Part shown: positions 309 to 6,931 of the stretch, one piece after another
How the letters are laid out: every line of letters starts with the position of its first letter
Position numbering within the stretch: position 1 is the stretch's first letter
Origin: Elusimicrobiota bacterium
GTDB lineage: Bacteria; Elusimicrobiota; Elusimicrobia; UBA1565; UBA9628
Reading direction: 5' to 3'
Assembly: GCA_016194625.1 (NCBI GenBank)
Contig: JACQBB010000165.1
Coordinates: forward strand, 1 to 7,948
Length of the DNA stretch: 7,948 nucleotides
Made by a program: the position numbers and the translations under genes
Notes under the pieces: generated by a model
Seen by the model: only the letters and a program-made list of their open reading frames with translations
Databases searched by the model: none
Told to the model about the DNA's origin: nothing

Positions 309-1649
309 CTACCAGGAATACTTGACGGTGTAGGTCACGACGGCCTCGCCGTCCTTCTTGACCGGGACCTCGAACTCGATCGTCTGCGCGTCCTTCTTCG
401 CGAACTTGGCCGAGGAGTCGACGATCTTCCAGTTCGTCCAGCGGTACAGGTGCTCGACGACGGTCACCGTCGCGTCGGCGTCCTTGTGGTTGCGCAGGCG
501 CACCTCGAAGGTCTCCTCGAAACGGCGCTTGTTCAGGTCGGACGCGTAGTCGGTGCGCTTGCGCTCGCCGACCACGTCGAACGCCTCGCCCATCTTCACG
601 CGGATCTTCTCGTCCTTGGGCGTGTGGTCGATCGAATCCTCGCCCGCGAACTGGAGCGAGCCCTCGTCGTCCTTCTTGTACACGCGCAGGCGGCCCTTCG
701 GCAGGGGGATCCCCAGGCCGTCGGCCTTCTTGTTCTGGAACTCCAAGAAGACCGAGACCTTCTTGCCCGACGACAGCCCGTAGTTCGGGTCCCAGTAGCC
801 CGAATCGCCGAAGCCCCACCACGACACTCCCTGCGCGCCGTCGTACACGTACCGCGCCAGCGTGTACAGGTGGTACTCGAAGAACGTCTTCTCCGTCATG
901 TTCTCCTCGCGCAGCGCCGCCTTGGCCATCATGCCGCCCATCGCGTAGCCGCCGCGCATCGGCACCGGGGCGCGGTGCACGTCCCCGGCGACCAGCTTGA
1001 GCTTGGCGTCCTTGTAGGTGGCGCCCGAGTTGTTGGTCACCGTCGTCCACGCGTTGAGGTCGCCCTTCGCGTCGTCCTTGTCCACGACGAGCACGTAGTC
1101 GGCGCTCCAGCTCATCCCCGAGGTCAGATAGGAGATCTCGCCCTGATGCTCGCCGCCCTTAGAGGCGCTCAGCTTCCACACCAGCGTCGGCTTGGTCAGC
1201 AGGCCCTCGGGCAGCTCGGGCAGGACCGGCGAGCCCGGCGGGTTGATCAGGATCTTCCCGTTCGACTGCAGGACGCGGCCGCCGGCCGTCGAGAGCAGGG
1301 TCCCCTTGATCGTCTCGCGCTTGTCGCCGTCGCGGCCGGTCACGCGCTCCAGCTCGATCTCCTTGCCGAGATAGCGGTTCAGGATGCTGTCGGGGCTGGC
1401 CAGGTCGTAGCGGAAGTCCTGCTCCAAGACGGTGACCGCGTCCGGAGCGGTCAACGACTTGAAGTGGACGCTGGTCGGGTCGATCTGCGCGGCCACGTCC
1501 TCGACCTTCAGCTCGCTGACGCCGGACCTCAGGGCGAAGGGGCGGGTCTCCTTCACCAGGCCCAGGTTGGAGTTGTACACGGTCACTTCGGTGGCCGACG
1601 CGGCGGACGCGAGCGCGGCGGCGGCGAGGAACGACAGGGTCGTTTTCAT
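309..1649 (-). CDS. Exported DUF4139 domain-containing protein
   Basis: 446 residues, ATG start at 1649. The open frame continues upstream to 2189, but this start is clearly right: it has AGGAGG seven bases upstream and begins with a signal peptide (MKTTLSFLAAAALASAASA, likely cut after residue 19), so the mature protein is outside the cytoplasmic membrane. Family hallmarks are YLTSGMSWSADY (174-185), FFEYHLYTL (256-264), GLGIPLPKGRLRVYKKD (311-327) and GEDSIDHTPKDEKIRVKMGEAFDV (336-359), all typical of the DUF4139 C-terminal domain. The family is widespread but its biochemical role is not established. An odd feature: the protein passes directly from YHLYTL (259-264) to ARYVYDG (265-271), whereas homologues as I remember them carry about 25-28 residues there (an RPTTL...NQTKQ...L segment). 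The N-terminal part (20-170) is predicted mostly beta. It is divergent from the umuD-like gene across an 87-base region and may share regulation with it. Family call is firm; function unknown. Confidence 0.9.
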   Translation of the reverse strand: MKTTLSFLAAAALASAASATEVTVYNSNLGLVKETRPFALRSGVSELKVEDVAAQIDPTSVHFKSLTAPDAVTVLEQDFRYDLASPDSILNRYLGKEIELERVTGRDGDKRETIKGTLLSTAGGRVLQSNGKILINPPGSPVLPELPEGLLTKPTLVWKLSASKGGEHQGEISYLTSGMSWSADYVLVVDKDDAKGDLNAWTTVTNNSGATYKDAKLKLVAGDVHRAPVPMRGGYAMGGMMAKAALREENMTEKTFFEYHLYTLARYVYDGAQGVSWWGFGDSGYWDPNYGLSSGKKVSVFLEFQNKKADGLGIPLPKGRLRVYKKDDEGSLQFAGEDSIDHTPKDEKIRVKMGEAFDVVGERKRTDYASDLNKRRFEETFEVRLRNHKDADATVTVVEHLYRWTNWKIVDSSAKFAKKDAQTIEFEVPVKKDGEAVVTYTVKYSW

Positions 1650-1679: not shown

Positions 1680-1708
1680 ATCATAGGATAGTTCCCGGCC
1701 CTTGAAAC
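1680..1708 (-). promoter_or_regulatory. Possible promoter of the DUF4139 gene
   Basis: On the minus strand TATGAT (1680-1685) is a good -10 hexamer; 17 bases upstream lies GTTTCA (1703-1708), a poor -35. Transcription would begin near 1673 and give a leader of about 23 bases holding the AGGAGG. The -35 area overlaps the -35 of the divergent umuD promoter and abuts the LexA box, so the two promoters probably compete or are co-repressed. Inferred from sequence only. Confidence 0.4.
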
Positions 1709-1730
1709 CGAACAGACGTTCGACTATACT
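1702..1730 (+). promoter_or_regulatory. Sigma-70-type promoter of the umuD-like/umuC operon
   Basis: TTGAAA (1702-1707) and TATACT (1725-1730) are separated by exactly 17 bases, each matching the consensus at four to five of six positions. The region stands out as AT-rich in a very GC-rich window. The expected transcription start, six to seven bases past the -10, falls on or next to the ATG at 1737, which implies a leaderless or nearly leaderless mRNA. The spacer contains the LexA operator. Confidence 0.8.
1709..1722. promoter_or_regulatory. LexA/DinR operator (SOS box)
   Basis: CGAACAGACGTTCG matches the Bacillus-type SOS box consensus CGAAC-RNRY-GTTCG at every position: a five-base perfect inverted repeat around a four-base centre. 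It lies inside the 17-base spacer of the umuD-like promoter, the ideal place for repression, and ahead of the genes expected to be SOS-controlled. It also touches the -35 region of the divergent DUF4139 promoter. Confidence 0.88.
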
Positions 1731-1736
1731 GAGGTC

Positions 1737-2027
1737 ATGTTCGTCGCCGCCGAAGACTACGCCGACCAAGGCCTCAGCCTCGACGAGCGCCTCGTGCGCC
1801 GCCCCGCGGCGACCTTCTTCATGAAGGCGTCCGCGTCCTCCCCCGACGCCGGGATCGAGGAGGGCGACCTGCTGATCGTGGACCGCGGGGAGCCGCCGGT
1901 CCCCGGCAAGGTCGTCGTCGCCGTGGTCGCCGGCGAGCTGGCCGCGCGGCGCCTGCCGCCCGGCTGGCGCGAGGACGACGGGCTCGAGGTGTGGGGCGTC
2001 GTGACCTGGATCGCGCGCGCGCCGTAG
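1737..2027 (+). CDS. umuD: UmuD'-like subunit, truncated and probably non-cleaving S24-family protein
   Basis: 96 residues. From memory of E. coli UmuD (139 aa), AAEDYADQGLSLDERLVRRP (4-23) matches UmuD 30-48, FFMKASASS (27-35) matches YFVKASGDS (52-60), and AGIEEGDLLIVDR (38-50) and LEVWGVV (83-89) match the rest of the fold. UmuD must be cut at Cys24-Gly25 to become active UmuD'; this protein begins at the equivalent of residue 26, so the self-cleaved arm is absent. The ATG is the only possible start: the frame upstream has no ATG, GTG or TTG before an in-frame TAG at 1689-1691. Ser35 aligns with catalytic Ser60, but the catalytic Lys97 position is Arg71 (GELAARRL versus GEFTVKKL), and about 16 residues after it, including the LxPxN strand, are missing. 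Family role: binds UmuC to form DNA polymerase V during the SOS response. Here it likely serves as a constitutive UmuD'. umuC follows after four bases. Confidence 0.82.
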   Translation: MFVAAEDYADQGLSLDERLVRRPAATFFMKASASSPDAGIEEGDLLIVDRGEPPVPGKVVVAVVAGELAARRLPPGWREDDGLEVWGVVTWIARAP

Positions 2028-2031
2028 AGCC

Positions 2032-3273
2032 ATGGCCGTCTTCGCGCTCGTAGACTGCAACAACTTCTTCGTCTCCTGCGAGCGCGTCTTCCGTCCGGAG
2101 CTGGAAGGCCGCCCGGTCGTCGTCCTCTCCGGCAACGACGGCGTCGTGATCTCGCGCTCGGAGGAAGCCAAGGCGCTGGGGATCGGCATGGCGGTGCCCT
2201 TCCACGAGGTGCGCGCGCTCGCCGTCGAGCACCGGGTCGCGGCGCTGTCGGCCGATCACGAGCTGTACGTGGACATGTCGCGCCGCGTCGCCGAAGTCCT
2301 CCGGCGCCATTCGCCCGAGGTCGAGGGCTACTCGATCGACGAGTCGTTCCTGAGCATGCCGGACGACGGCTCGCTGCTGACGCGCGCCCGCGACCTGCGC
2401 GCCGAGGTCGGCCGCTGGACGGGCATCCCCGTCTCCGTCGGCCTGGGCCCGACGAAGGCGCTGGCCAAGCTCGCCTCCGACAAGTCCAAGAAGGCCGGCG
2501 GCGTGCTCTCCCTGCTCGACCCCGCCGTCCGCGCCGAGGCGCTGCGCGTCACGCCGGTCGAGCACGTGTGGGGCATCGCGAAGGCGTCGGCGGCCAAGCT
2601 CGCCGCCCATGGCGCGACGACCGCGGCGGACTTCGCGTCGCTGAGCGACGCCGTCCTGCAGGCCGCGCTCGGCGTCGGCGGCGTGCGCCTGGCCCAGGAG
2701 CTGCGCGGCGTCTCCTGCCTGACGCTGGCCCACGCCGCGCCCGAGCGTCAATCGGTGACCGTCTCGCGCACCTTCGGACGCCCGGTCGGCAGCCTCGCGG
2801 GCCTCGACTCCGCGCTCGCGTCGTTCGCGGCGCAGGCCGCCGAGCGCGCGCGGCGCCACGGCCTCAAGGCGGGCGCGGTGCGCGTGTTCGTCGGCTGGCG
2901 CGAGGAGGGCGGCCTCAAAGGCGACGACGCGGTCGTCCGCGTGCCGCCGACCGACGACACCGCGGCGATCACGCGCGCGGCCAAGGCGCTCGGCGAGCGC
3001 CTGTTCGTCGAGGGCCGCTCTCTGCGCAAGGCGGGCGTCGTGCTGGGCGCCTTGGAACGCGCCGACGACGCCCAAGGCGACTTCTTCGACGACGGGCGCG
3101 CGGAGCGCGCGCGCCGGCTGTCGAAGGCGGTGGACCGCCTCAACGCGTCGCTCGGGGCGGGGACCCTGCGCTACGGCGGGACGGCGGCCCCGAAGGAGTG
3201 GACGCCGAAGAGCGCGACGCGCTCGCCGCGCTGGACGACCGTCTGGTCGGAGCTCCCGAAAGTCGGAGCCTGA
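2032..3273 (+). CDS. umuC: UmuC, Y-family error-prone DNA polymerase V catalytic subunit
   Basis: 413 residues, close to E. coli UmuC (422). The family makes DNA across lesions during SOS. Visible marks: palm metal ligands Asp8 (ALVDCNNF) and Asp103-Glu104 (YSIDES); steric gate at Phe13, where UmuC commonly has Tyr; fingers motif LSGNDGVVISRSEEAKALGI; GLGPTKALAKLASDKSKK (143-160); thumb helix-hairpin-helix region beginning VEHVWGIAKASAAKLAAHG; little finger beginning about residue 240 (SVTVSRTFGRPV); a candidate beta-clamp motif QGDFF (348-352); and a DUF4113-type C-terminus (LNASLGAGTLRYGG...SPRWTTVWSEL). No key residue is missing, so it should be active. It starts four bases after the UmuD-like stop without a clear Shine-Dalgarno, which suggests translational coupling, and is under the LexA-controlled promoter at 1702-1730. 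Its stop lies one base from a convergent stop. Confidence 0.95.
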   Translation: MAVFALVDCNNFFVSCERVFRPELEGRPVVVLSGNDGVVISRSEEAKALGIGMAVPFHEVRALAVEHRVAALSADHELYVDMSRRVAEVLRRHSPEVEGYSIDESFLSMPDDGSLLTRARDLRAEVGRWTGIPVSVGLGPTKALAKLASDKSKKAGGVLSLLDPAVRAEALRVTPVEHVWGIAKASAAKLAAHGATTAADFASLSDAVLQAALGVGGVRLAQELRGVSCLTLAHAAPERQSVTVSRTFGRPVGSLAGLDSALASFAAQAAERARRHGLKAGAVRVFVGWREEGGLKGDDAVVRVPPTDDTAAITRAAKALGERLFVEGRSLRKAGVVLGALERADDAQGDFFDDGRAERARRLSKAVDRLNASLGAGTLRYGGTAAPKEWTPKSATRSPRWTTVWSELPKVGA

Positions 3274-3274
3274 C

Positions 3275-3457
3275 TCAGCGGACGCGTCCGCCGGAGAAGA
3301 CCGGGTGCGGGCGGCGGCGGCCGAAGAGCAGGACCACGGCGGCCAGGATCAGGGAGCTCCCCAGACCCGCGAAGACCGCGACCTGAGCGTCCGCGCGAGC
3401 GACCCCCGCGGACGGACGCGCGTTCCTCGGCCCGACGACGGAGAAGGTGGCGTTCAT
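3275..3457 (-). CDS. Small single-pass membrane protein A
   Basis: 60 residues, ATG at 3457. One strongly hydrophobic segment, residues 26-46 (VAVFAGLGSSLILAAVVLLFG), is followed at once by RRR and a short basic tail; by the positive-inside rule the N-terminus faces out and the tail is cytoplasmic. GAAGG lies a few bases before the start, and TACACT (minus strand, 3466-3471) eight bases before it could be a -10 giving a very short leader, but no good -35 is visible. No family recognised. It resembles the neighbouring small gene in size, start (MN), and topology. The N-terminal 25 residues are Arg/Ala/Pro-rich. Convergent with umuC, the two stop codons separated by a single base. Small ORFs arise easily in GC-rich DNA; the clean helix with flanking arginines argues for a real gene. 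Confidence 0.55.
   Translation of the reverse strand: MNATFSVVGPRNARPSAGVARADAQVAVFAGLGSSLILAAVVLLFGRRRPHPVFSGGRVR
3278..3291. terminator. Perfect 14-base palindrome at the convergent umuC/small gene A ends
   Basis: GCGGACGCGTCCGC reads identically on both strands, five bases past the umuC stop and inside the last codons of small gene A. As RNA it can form a GCGGA stem closed by a CGCG loop. The place suits a bidirectional terminator, but the stem is short and no T-run follows. Confidence 0.3.
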
Positions 3458-3517: not shown

Positions 3518-3703
3518 CTAGAAGCGCGGGCCGGTGTAGCGCGCGGCGTGGGGCTCGTGGAAGGACTTGAGCAGGCGGCCTCCGGCCATCAAGAACAGGA
3601 AGCCGACGGCGGCCATCACGGCGACGAAGAGAGCCCCCTCGGCGGTGCCGCCCAAGGCGGCGTGTCCGGACTCAAGTCCGACGGCGGCGATCATGATGTT
3701 CAT
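3518..3703 (-). CDS. Small single-pass membrane protein B
   Basis: 61 residues from ATG 3703 (a second Met at residue 4 is an alternative start). A single hydrophobic helix at about residues 23-41 (GALFVAVMAAVGFLFLMAG) is followed by GRLLK and a basic/aromatic tail (SFHEPHAARYTGPRF), giving N-out, C-in topology by the positive-inside rule. The N-terminal 22 residues are small and uncharged-to-acidic. GGGAG lies ten bases before the ATG and GAGAG directly abuts it, so the ribosome site is mediocre. No family recognised; not a known toxin motif. It lies downstream of RNase R on the same strand with a 94-base gap, and upstream of small gene A, with which it shares length and layout. Could be an assembly or scaffold peptide of a membrane complex, but nothing shows which. 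Confidence 0.55.
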   Translation of the reverse strand: MNIMIAAVGLESGHAALGGTAEGALFVAVMAAVGFLFLMAGGRLLKSFHEPHAARYTGPRF

Positions 3704-5721: not shown

Positions 5722-6450
5722 TCAGCCCGCGTCCGTCTGCCAGATCAGCACTTCCGCGCCTTCGGCCCCGGCGGTCCAGACCGGCGCCCCCGCCCGGAAC
5801 AGGCGCGCCGCGTCGCCCGCGCGCAGCTCCCCCGCGCCGGCCAGGCTCCCCGCGCCCTTGCCGACGAACAGGTGCGCGTGCGACGCCTCGGGCACCTTCA
5901 CCGTCTCGCCCGGGCGCAGGCGCCCCGCCCACAGCGTCGCGTCCTTCTGGCGGATGCGGATCGCGGCGACGTCGCCGCGGCCGGAGGCGACGGGCACCAG
6001 GCCGCCCTTGGCCAGCTCCGCGTTGATGTCGAGCTGCTCGTAGCCGGGCGCGACGCTCTCGGTGTCCGGGACGACCCACATCTGGACCAGGTGCGCTTCG
6101 GCGGACTTCGAGTTGTTGATCTCCGAATGCCAGATGCCGGAGCCCGCGCTCATGCGCTGGGCCAGGCCGGGATAGATCACGCCGAGGTTCCCCTCGGAGT
6201 CCTTGTGCTCCAGCTCGCCGGACAGCATCCAGGTGACGATCTCCATGTCGCGGTGCGGGTGCGTCATGAAGCCGGACGCGGGCTTGATGCGGTCCTCGTT
6301 GCTGACCAGGAGCAGGCCGTGATGCGTGTTGGTCGGGTCGTAGTGGGGCCCGAAGGAGAAGCTGTGGCGGCCGTCCAGCCAGCCGATCTTCGTGCGGAAG
6401 CGGTCGTCGCCCTTCACGATCCGGATCACGCCCTCGTCGGTCTCCTTCAT
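5722..6450 (-). CDS. Pirin-family bicupin protein (YhhW-like)
   Basis: 242 residues, ATG at 6450. Pirins are cytoplasmic two-domain cupins binding one metal; some show quercetin 2,3-dioxygenase activity and others act as regulatory partners. The four expected metal ligands are present: His64 and His66 in the MTHPHRDMEIVTWMLSGELEHKDS signature region (62 onward), and His108 and Glu110 in SAGSGIWHSEINNS. The N-terminal FSFGPHYDP and LLLVSNEDRI segments are typical. The C-terminal cupin (about 150-242) is Ala/Gly-rich and has no obvious metal site, as usual. The length is near that of E. coli YhhW (231). Its ATG overlaps the marR stop as ATGA, and GGGAGGG within the marR 3' end is its ribosome site, so the two are translationally coupled and should share the marR promoter and operator. 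A role in oxidative or electrophile stress is a guess from the MarR pairing. Confidence 0.92.
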   Translation of the reverse strand: MKETDEGVIRIVKGDDRFRTKIGWLDGRHSFSFGPHYDPTNTHHGLLLVSNEDRIKPASGFMTHPHRDMEIVTWMLSGELEHKDSEGNLGVIYPGLAQRMSAGSGIWHSEINNSKSAEAHLVQMWVVPDTESVAPGYEQLDINAELAKGGLVPVASGRGDVAAIRIRQKDATLWAGRLRPGETVKVPEASHAHLFVGKGAGSLAGAGELRAGDAARLFRAGAPVWTAGAEGAEVLIWQTDAG

Positions 6451-6905
6451 AAGCCCTCCCGGGCGGCCAAGCCCAGTTTGCGGCACAGCCGCCTCAGCTC
6501 GTCCTGCTCCGCCGCGCTCAGCGCGCCCATCGTCCTCGCGATCAGCCGCGCGTGGCGCGGGAACATGCCCGCGATGCGCCGGCGTCCCTTCGCCGTCAGC
6601 TCCAAGGTGCGGTAGCGCCGGTCCTCGGCGCGCGGCGTCCGCGCGATCAGCCCGTCGCGCTCCAGGTTCGAGACGACCAAGGTCAGATTGCCGCGGGTCC
6701 GGAGCACCTTCTCCGCGATCTCCGCCGCGCACAGCGGCCCGAGGTGGTACAGCGCCTCCAGGACCCCGAACTGCCCGTCCGTCAGGCCCGCCGCGTCGAT
6801 CGTCTCCTGCGTGCGCGCGCCGACGCTCTCCGCCGCGCGCGACAGCGCGATGAACGCGTTCAGCGCCCGGACCTCCGCGATGCTCCCCTTGTGCCTGGTG
6901 CCCAT
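6447..6905 (-). CDS. MarR-family transcriptional regulator
   Basis: 152 residues, ATG at 6905; AGGA lies two bases upstream, a weak ribosome site. Winged helix-turn-helix order: helix around GQFGVLEALYHLG (44-56), HTH AAEIAEKVLRTRGNLTLVVSNLERDGLI (60-87), wing with the family's DRR signature RTPRAEDRRYRTLELTAKG (89-107), then C-terminal dimerisation helices. Cys59, at the start of the HTH, and Cys141 might sense oxidants or electrophiles as in some MarR proteins, but they are not at the classical OhrR N-terminal position; this is inference. It is the first gene of a coupled pair with pirin (ATGA overlap), and a perfect inverted repeat nine bases upstream of its start is probably its own operator, which suggests autorepression. 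The effector is unknown. Confidence 0.92.
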   Translation of the reverse strand: MGTRHKGSIAEVRALNAFIALSRAAESVGARTQETIDAAGLTDGQFGVLEALYHLGPLCAAEIAEKVLRTRGNLTLVVSNLERDGLIARTPRAEDRRYRTLELTAKGRRRIAGMFPRHARLIARTMGALSAAEQDELRRLCRKLGLAAREGL

Positions 6906-6913
6906 GGTCCTAT

Positions 6914-6931
6914 TAGTTCAATGTTGAACTA
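6914..6931. promoter_or_regulatory. Likely MarR operator, perfect 8-2-8 inverted repeat
   Basis: TAGTTCAA-TG-TTGAACTA is an uninterrupted inverted repeat of eight-base arms, very AT-rich against its surroundings, located nine bases before the marR ATG. Its size and symmetry are those of MarR dimer sites. It overlaps a -10-like TATAGT on the minus strand (6928-6933), so binding would block marR-pirin transcription. The arms are GTTC...GAAC in orientation, opposite to the GAAC...GTTC of the SOS box. Confidence 0.82.

What the first reader, a model, noticed from the sequence alone, without database searches (positions are those of the whole stretch)
1737..2027. A UmuD homologue that begins at the UmuD' cleavage point
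In E. coli the mutagenic form of UmuD is made only after RecA-stimulated self-cleavage between residues 24 and 25. This gene starts at the equivalent of residue 26, and no alternative start exists upstream (in-frame stop at 1689-1691, no ATG/GTG/TTG between). The protein would therefore be 'born cleaved', removing the post-translational delay that normally holds back error-prone repair and leaving LexA repression as the main control. The alignment is from memory of the E. coli sequence; the functional conclusion is inference.
Basis: partly seen in the sequence, partly recalled or inferred. Interest (0 to 1): 0.75.

Follow-up and report, generated by a model that had tools for sequence, protein, structure and literature searches.

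The report
UmuD' made ready-cut, without self-cleavage
A group of little-known bacteria (within the Elusimicrobiota) encodes the helper of its error-prone repair DNA polymerase directly in the shortened form that E. coli makes only by slow self-cutting, and the cutting machinery itself is worn away; a phage gene was the known example of this kind, and here it looks built into a bacterial chromosome.

Summary
The 96-aa ORF at 1737-2027 aligns with E. coli UmuD from residue 26, just past the cleaved bond, 4 nt before umuC. It is no start-codon artefact: a promoter whose spacer is a perfect LexA box ends 6 nt before the ATG. The same layout stands in 13 of 13 Elusimicrobiota genomes with the gene (of 340 searched); that box also precedes lexA in 9 of 9 genomes read and recA. 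Of 118 close homologues, 110 are exactly 96 aa; catalytic Lys97 is lost in 116, Ser60 in 58. Homologues with a cleavage site mostly keep both residues (105 of 106 in one set, 33 of 38 in another). Rhodospirillales show a parallel short form. Best explanation: a proteolytically dead, ready-cut UmuD' under LexA control, so Pol V needs no UmuD cleavage. Function is inferred, not tested. Phage P1 HumD is the precedent; new here are a chromosomal operon with its own umuC and no UmuD found, the lost dyad, about 16 residues trimmed, and fixation in a lineage.

The parts
1702..1730 (+). sigma-70-type promoter, TTGAAA - 17 nt - TATACT; -10 ends 6 nt before the ATG (probable leaderless mRNA)
   Evidence: only promoter-like site in 1500-2200, mean 0.0 in shuffles; composite pattern found once, 0 in 200 shuffles; same layout in 13 of 13 genomes
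1709..1722 (.). LexA box CGAACAGACGTTCG, lying in the -35/-10 spacer
   Evidence: the one exact match in the window (with up to one mismatch 2 matches, 0.56 expected by chance, so the box alone is not proof); box conserved at this place in 13 of 13 genomes and before lexA in 9 of 9
1737..2027 (+). born-cleaved UmuD' (96 aa), starting at the equivalent of UmuD residue 26; catalytic Lys97 replaced by Arg71; Ser35 at the Ser60 place followed by Pro with one residue missing; about 16 residues missing in the C-terminal half
   Evidence: AF2 model pLDDT 86.3 matching UmuD' first
2032..3273 (+). umuC, catalytic subunit of Pol V, with IMS, IMS_C and the C-terminal DUF4113 tail

Best explanation
The gene encodes a pre-activated, proteolytically dead UmuD' that pairs with the UmuC encoded next to it. 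In undamaged cells LexA sits on the box between the -35 and -10 elements and blocks transcription. When RecA filaments trigger LexA self-cleavage, a leaderless umuD'-umuC mRNA is made and translation gives UmuD' and UmuC at once. No RecA-driven UmuD cleavage, and no UmuD/UmuD' heterodimer stage, lies between transcription and Pol V assembly. Shown here: the short start, the promoter and LexA box, the conserved operon, the loss of the dyad, the UmuD' fold in a model. Inferred: leaderless translation, LexA binding, Pol V activity, mutagenesis, and loss of the cleavage delay. RecA and ATP are probably still needed to activate the polymerase.
For: Start at UmuD residue 26. 118 homologues, 110 exactly 96 aa; all 118 contain MF[VI]A.ED; 14 are annotated with 7-24 extra residues, and extensions such as MFEYTQG read the LexA box and -10. 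13 of 13 genomes plus the window: G[AG]ACN4GTTC box, TATACT, ATG 5-7 nt later. umuC directly adjacent in 12 of 13; in the 13th (G211) a contig end cuts umuC, whose first codons are present. TCGAACN4GTTCGA: 53 sites in 13 genomes against 1 for the reversed pattern; of 17 loci read, 6 have recA, 2 lexA, 5 umuD' behind the box. Lys97 lost in 116 of 118, Ser60 in 58 of 118. Homologues with an Ala/Cys-Gly site keep both Ser and Lys in 105 of 106 (Rhodospirillales-seeded list) and 33 of 38 (loci L013-L066), and in 29 of 29 other loci of an alphaproteobacterial class sample (30 loci read of 61 genomes with a match). LexA keeps VPAG, GDSM and TVKRL in 9 of 9 genomes read. M1, F2, A4, E6 and D7 are invariant in 45 aligned members though weak in the monomer model, as expected if they insert into UmuC like the UmuD' arm (PMC12926913, passage). 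pN/pS median 0.42 in 55 pairs of 11 distinct genes. Precedent: P1 HumD, called an already activated shorter UmuD (PMC7092418, passage).
Against: No experiment. NCBIfam cut-offs for UmuD and HumD are not reached (74.5 of 110 bits; 64.2 of 120). The residues missing in the C-terminal half could affect dimerisation or UmuC binding. 2 of 118 homologues (P0062, P0067) keep Ser and Lys at both places; if Ser34 may stand in for Ser60, only 19 of 118 lack a Ser there. One genome (G008, the closed one) has a frame break in the gene and in umuC. The window's own lexA and recA could not be read, as its genome is not held.
Confidence: 0.77

Rival explanations
1. A structural or inhibitory partner of UmuC: the short protein is made under LexA and binds UmuC (or DinB), but serves damage tolerance or checkpoint control rather than mutagenic synthesis.
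For: The fold is trimmed and function cannot be read from sequence; UmuD is known to modulate DinB (PMC9578287, passage).
Against: The conserved pair with a UmuC that keeps IMS, IMS_C and the DUF4113 tail and a clamp-like QGDFF stretch (motif recalled) fits a Pol V; full-length UmuD holds back mutagenesis and UmuD'2C does the synthesis (PMC3901139, passage).
Confidence: 0.13
2. The post-translational check is not gone but moved: another factor (RecA filament transfer, or a peptidase such as SRAP) still holds Pol V back after synthesis. Partly compatible with the best explanation.
For: RecA and ATP are needed by E. coli Pol V (PMC6511836, passage). In G008 an SRAP gene diverges across a LexA-type box (L187), and UmuC-like/SRAP links are reported (PMC12926913, passage).
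Against: The promoter elements at L187 face the other gene, a 194-aa ORF without Pfam match; no SRAP was seen beside umuD'C in the window; no direct link was tested.
Confidence: 0.25
3. Start mis-call or lost N-terminus: the true protein is longer, by a frameshift or a non-standard start upstream.
For: Gene callers give 7-24 extra residues in 14 of 118 homologues; 4 of 13 genomes have an in-frame ATG/GTG/TTG upstream.
Against: Those codons lie in the -35 element or the LexA box, or upstream of both; the layout is conserved in 13 of 13 genomes; the other 9 and the window have no upstream start.
Confidence: 0.03
4. A decaying remnant of UmuD on its way out.
For: Dyad lost, residues lost, one genome with a frame break.
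Against: 110 of 118 keep the exact length; pN/pS about 0.42; promoter and LexA box conserved in 13 of 13.
Confidence: 0.03

Closest known systems
HumD of phage P1 and its kin (N15 gp26, HK140; NCBIfam NF051876)
   Same: Starts at the cleavage point (MGFPSP, Met at the place of residue 24); LexA site annotated upstream of P1 humD; record note says it functionally complements UmuD'.
   Different: Phage gene; no umuC among the features within 1.2 kb in P1, HK140 and N15; Lys97 kept in these three; 128-129 aa with a long C-terminal part; the window protein is below the HumD family cut-off.
UmuD/UmuD' of E. coli Pol V
   Different: No arm, no cleavage site, Lys97 gone in 116 of 118 members, about 16 residues shorter in the C-terminal half; LexA box of the GAACN4GTTC kind.
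Rhodospirillales-type short forms (L031/L038; P0121-P0127, P0152, P0154, P0174, P0183)
   Same: Start MPFL at about residue 24-25, Lys97 replaced by Arg in all 11 proteins named; the 99-101 aa ones also lack the C-terminal stretch; GTTCN7GTTC box before the ATG and umuC after it in L031 and L038.
   Different: Different start motif; in L031/L038, P0122 and P0126 the open frame runs further upstream, so the short start there is inferred from the other members; UmuC groups with full-length alphaproteobacterial rows when these are in the tree, without firm support.
UmuDAb of Acinetobacter
   Same: A UmuD relative with altered regulation.
   Different: Opposite direction: a longer N-terminus with a DNA-binding domain and repressor activity (PMC4807011 and PMC8565304, passages).

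Membership tests
S24 / Peptidase_S24 (Pfam PF00717) | Profile match over the curated cut-off | tested here: met
   36 bits against 23.3
S24 / Peptidase_S24 (Pfam PF00717) | Ser-Lys catalytic dyad | tested here: not met
   Window: Ser kept, Lys97 is Arg71; in the family Lys lost in 116 of 118, Ser in 58 of 118
UmuD (full-length, self-cleaving) | N-terminal arm with Ala/Cys-Gly cleavage site | tested here: not met
   Starts at residue 26 equivalent; promoter directly upstream
UmuD (NCBIfam NF007621) | Score over curated cut-off | tested here: not met
   74.5 of 110 bits
UmuD' (active form) | UmuD' fold, beginning at about residue 25 | tested here: met
   AF2 model, best structural matches UmuD'; about 16 residues of the C-terminal half missing
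UmuD' (active form) | Operon with umuC under a LexA box | tested here: met
   LexA binding itself not tested
UmuD' (active form) | Supports SOS mutagenesis with UmuC and RecA | not testable with these tools
   needs experiment
HumD (NCBIfam NF051876) | Score over curated cut-off | tested here: not met
   64.2 of 120 bits
Proteins encoded already cleaved, HumD-like | ORF begins within two residues of the cleavage point | tested here: met
   HumD Met at 24, Rhodospirillales type at 24-25, window at 26
UmuC (Pol V catalytic subunit) | IMS, IMS_C and DUF4113 domains | tested here: met
UmuC (NCBIfam NF002955) | Score over curated cut-off | tested here: not met
   296.8 of 431 bits

The most novel reading that the evidence does not exclude
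The UmuD self-cleavage checkpoint, taken as the defining brake on Pol V, has been thrown away for good more than once in evolution, in chromosomal operons as well as phages. In Elusimicrobiota and in Rhodospirillales this went through the same steps: start moved to the cleavage point, Lys97 changed to Arg, a stretch of the C-terminal half deleted. The result is a minimal Pol V accessory subunit of about 96 residues whose only remaining pre-assembly brake is LexA.
Probability: 0.5. Interest if true: 0.68.

Novelty: new variant of a known kind. Interest (0 to 1): 0.55.

Why it matters
UmuD cleavage is the textbook delay that keeps mutagenic Pol V as a last resort. A bacterial lineage that encodes UmuD' directly, with its own UmuC, is a natural experiment on what that delay is for and on the smallest UmuD' that still works. 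It also predicts a fast onset of error-prone repair in these uncultured bacteria, set by LexA. One paper that I saw in passages calls P1 HumD the exception (PMC7092418).

Tried and rejected
A longer protein by upstream start or frameshift: rejected on promoter, LexA box and cross-genome conservation. A full-length UmuD in the phylum: none found in 340 genomes. Limits: at most 15 candidates per genome were scored, and the remaining matches have E of 6e-8 or worse, apart from a fragment of the broken G008 gene.

One common origin of the Elusimicrobiota and Rhodospirillales short forms: undecided. A first UmuC tree joined them (96/88; 7 rows dropped by name as fragments or near-copies). With alphaproteobacterial rows added, the Rhodospirillales pair moved next to full-length alphaproteobacteria (91/76 and 83/92, not starred), and the AU test did not reject one clade (p 0.289). 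The second tree left out 28 rows by name: fragments, near-copies and long branches, among them the Chlamydiia short form L050 and the Zixiibacteriota L013.

Coupling of arm loss to dyad loss is not absolute. Among the 54 loci L013-L066: 33 have site, Ser and Lys; 5 have the site but lost Lys or both (L027, L030, L032, L047, L052); 8 have no Ala/Cys-Gly site but keep Ser and Lys (6 viral with Ser-Gly, and Yersinia L048/L049); 8 have neither the site nor the full dyad. Phage HumD types keep Lys. In the 120-protein list, 12 of 14 without the site lack Lys; P0193 and P0238 keep it, and P0149, one of the 12, is an odd fragment. The Yersinia frames have earlier start codons too; the short start there rests on its SD-like GGAGG.

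P0119 (68 aa, cut short) and P0120 were left out of the 118; 98 of the 218 hits were not listed. In one search P0050 was trimmed at a wrong Met; one search gives corrected counts. One search printed only LexA frames chosen by motif on one strand; one search repeats this without that filter in 9 of 9 genomes. One search gave pN/pS 0.39 over 88 pairs with three duplicate loci; one search gives 0.42 over 55 pairs without them. first suggested SRAP as the gene driven at L187; searches show that the promoter elements face a 194-aa ORF and SRAP only diverges from the same box.

Papers: searches showed me no report of a chromosomal born-cleaved UmuD'C or of UmuD in Elusimicrobiota; some listings were capped (20 of 33, 12 of 150). 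I saw listings, and passages of PMC7092418, PMC4713147, PMC12926913, PMC3901139, PMC6511836, PMC4807011, PMC5101192, PMC9578287 and PMC8565304; no paper was read whole. The 1999 HumD paper is not held and is known only through citations.

Full report
What is there. The window's ORF 1737-2027 encodes 96 residues and is followed after 4 nt by umuC at 2032-3273. It matches Peptidase_S24 (Pfam, E 6e-9), and UmuC matches IMS, IMS_C and DUF4113. NCBIfam gives UmuD and HumD as best relatives, both under their cut-offs. Against solved structures the best hits are UmuD' chains; residue 5 of the query falls on residue 30 of full-length UmuD (8gmt), so the initiator Met is at 26, just past the Cys24-Gly25 bond.

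It is not an artefact. The only promoter-like site in 1500-2200 is TTGAAA-17-TATACT at 1702-1730, and its spacer holds CGAACAGACGTTCG, a perfect box of the GAACN4GTTC LexA type (box type recalled from Gram-positive bacteria). With one mismatch allowed the window has 2 such boxes where 0.56 are expected, so the box alone proves little; with the promoter the pattern occurs once and in 0 of 200 shuffles. The -10 ends 6 nt before the ATG, so the transcript most likely begins at or next to the ATG. There is an in-frame stop at 1689-1691 and no start codon between.

Relatives. A protein search gave 218 homologues (120 listed); 118 of those form one tight set at 63-100% identity, with Elusimicrobiota or Elusimicrobia in the names where NCBI names an organism. 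After trimming to the MF[VI]A start, 110 of 118 have exactly 96 residues. Fourteen are annotated with 7-24 more residues; extensions such as MFEYTQG or LEIERMFGYTGG read through the LexA box and -10, as the DNA of L001/L124 shows. A scan of genome contigs gave 12 Elusimicrobiota loci, all with the short start. A profile search of 340 genomes of the phylum found the short form in 13, the same 13 that have a UmuC at 58-73% identity; other S24 matches are LexA-sized or larger frames at E 6e-8 or worse. No full-length UmuD was found there. In 13 of 13, box, TATACT and ATG stand at the same spacing (ATG 5-7 nt after -10), and umuC is adjacent (12 on one contig, one cut by a contig end). Four of the 13 have an in-frame start codon further up, inside or above the promoter.

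SOS context. TCGAACN4GTTCGA occurs 2-6 times per genome in 13 of 13 (53 sites; reversed control 1 in all). Of 17 loci read, the box stands before recA in 6 (one checked by Pfam, the rest by motif), lexA in 2, umuD' in 5, a radical-SAM gene in 2 (Pfam for one), and an unidentified 194-195 aa ORF in 2; in one of these an SRAP gene diverges from the same box. In the 9 genomes whose lexA locus was read, all 9 LexA proteins keep VPAG, GDSM and TVKRL and all 9 genes have a GAACN4GTTC box 28-64 nt before the aligned start. So these cells carry an ordinary LexA/RecA response and seem to have dropped only the UmuD step.

Other short forms. Rhodospirillales-type MPFL forms start at about residue 24-25 with Lys97 to Arg in all 11 named, with GTTCN7GTTC before the ATG and umuC after it in L031 and L038; their 99-101 aa members lack the C-terminal stretch too. 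Two Yersinia loci have a short start (MSAFGNAAQDY, SD-like GGAGG, CTGTN8ACAG box) with Ser and Lys kept, though earlier start codons exist in frame. Phage HumD-type proteins start at MGFPSP. A Chlamydiia (L050) and a Paceibacter (L037) protein are also short and without Lys. UmuC trees put the Elusimicrobiota in one fully supported clade (100/100) and the Yersinia pair inside enterobacterial UmuC; starred branches force at least two changes of the short-start label. Whether Rhodospirillales arose separately is not settled.

How it most likely works. LexA blocks the promoter; on damage the operon gives UmuD' and UmuC together, with no cleavage step and no inhibitory UmuD. The conserved MF.A.ED start may take the place of the UmuD' arm in the UmuC cleft described in PMC12926913 (passage). 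This is inference from anatomy.

Against what is known. P1 HumD is described as an already activated, shorter UmuD and as an exception (PMC7092418, passage), so encoding UmuD' directly is not a new principle. New, as far as my searches go, are a bacterial chromosomal operon with its own umuC, its fixation in a lineage, the loss of the dyad and the trimmed fold.

Noticed in passing
L011 / G008 (CP096137.1): In the closed Elusimicrobiota chromosome the short umuD' and umuC both have a broken frame (umuD' reads on as 140 aa in L011; umuC matches in two pieces). Sequencing error or real decay cannot be told.
   Followed up: partly
window 6914-6931: Palindrome TAGTTCAA-TG-TTGAACTA (0 in 200 shuffles) just upstream of a MarR-family gene (6447-6905, minus) that overlaps a pirin-like gene (5722-6450); likely its operator.
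   Followed up: partly
window 309-1649 (minus): A DUF4139/DUF4140 protein diverges from umuD' across an 87-nt gap that holds the LexA box; it could be co-regulated.
   Followed up: no
L181 (G007), L188 (G003), L183 (G004), L187 (G008): LexA-type boxes before a radical-SAM gene (L181, L188) and before an unidentified 194-195 aa ORF that starts 13 nt after the box (L183, L187); in L187 an SRAP gene diverges from the same box. Suggests a wider SOS regulon.
   Followed up: partly
L067, L068, L069, L071, L073: In 5 of 9 genomes read the lexA gene has its box 28 nt before the aligned start, the same spacing as in umuD', so lexA mRNA may be leaderless there too.
   Followed up: no
L027, L032 (Zixiibacteriota); L047, L052 (Acidithiobacillus-type): UmuD homologues that keep an Ala-Gly site and an N-terminal region but have lost both Ser60 and Lys97: apparently uncleavable UmuD, the opposite state to born cleaved.
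   Followed up: partly
L048, L049 (Yersinia artesiana, Y. proxima): A HumD-like short UmuD' with Ser and Lys kept, in front of umuC, with an enterobacterial-type LexA box.
   Followed up: partly
window 3275-3457 and 3518-3703 (minus): Two small hydrophobic ORFs (60 and 61 aa) downstream of umuC.
   Followed up: no
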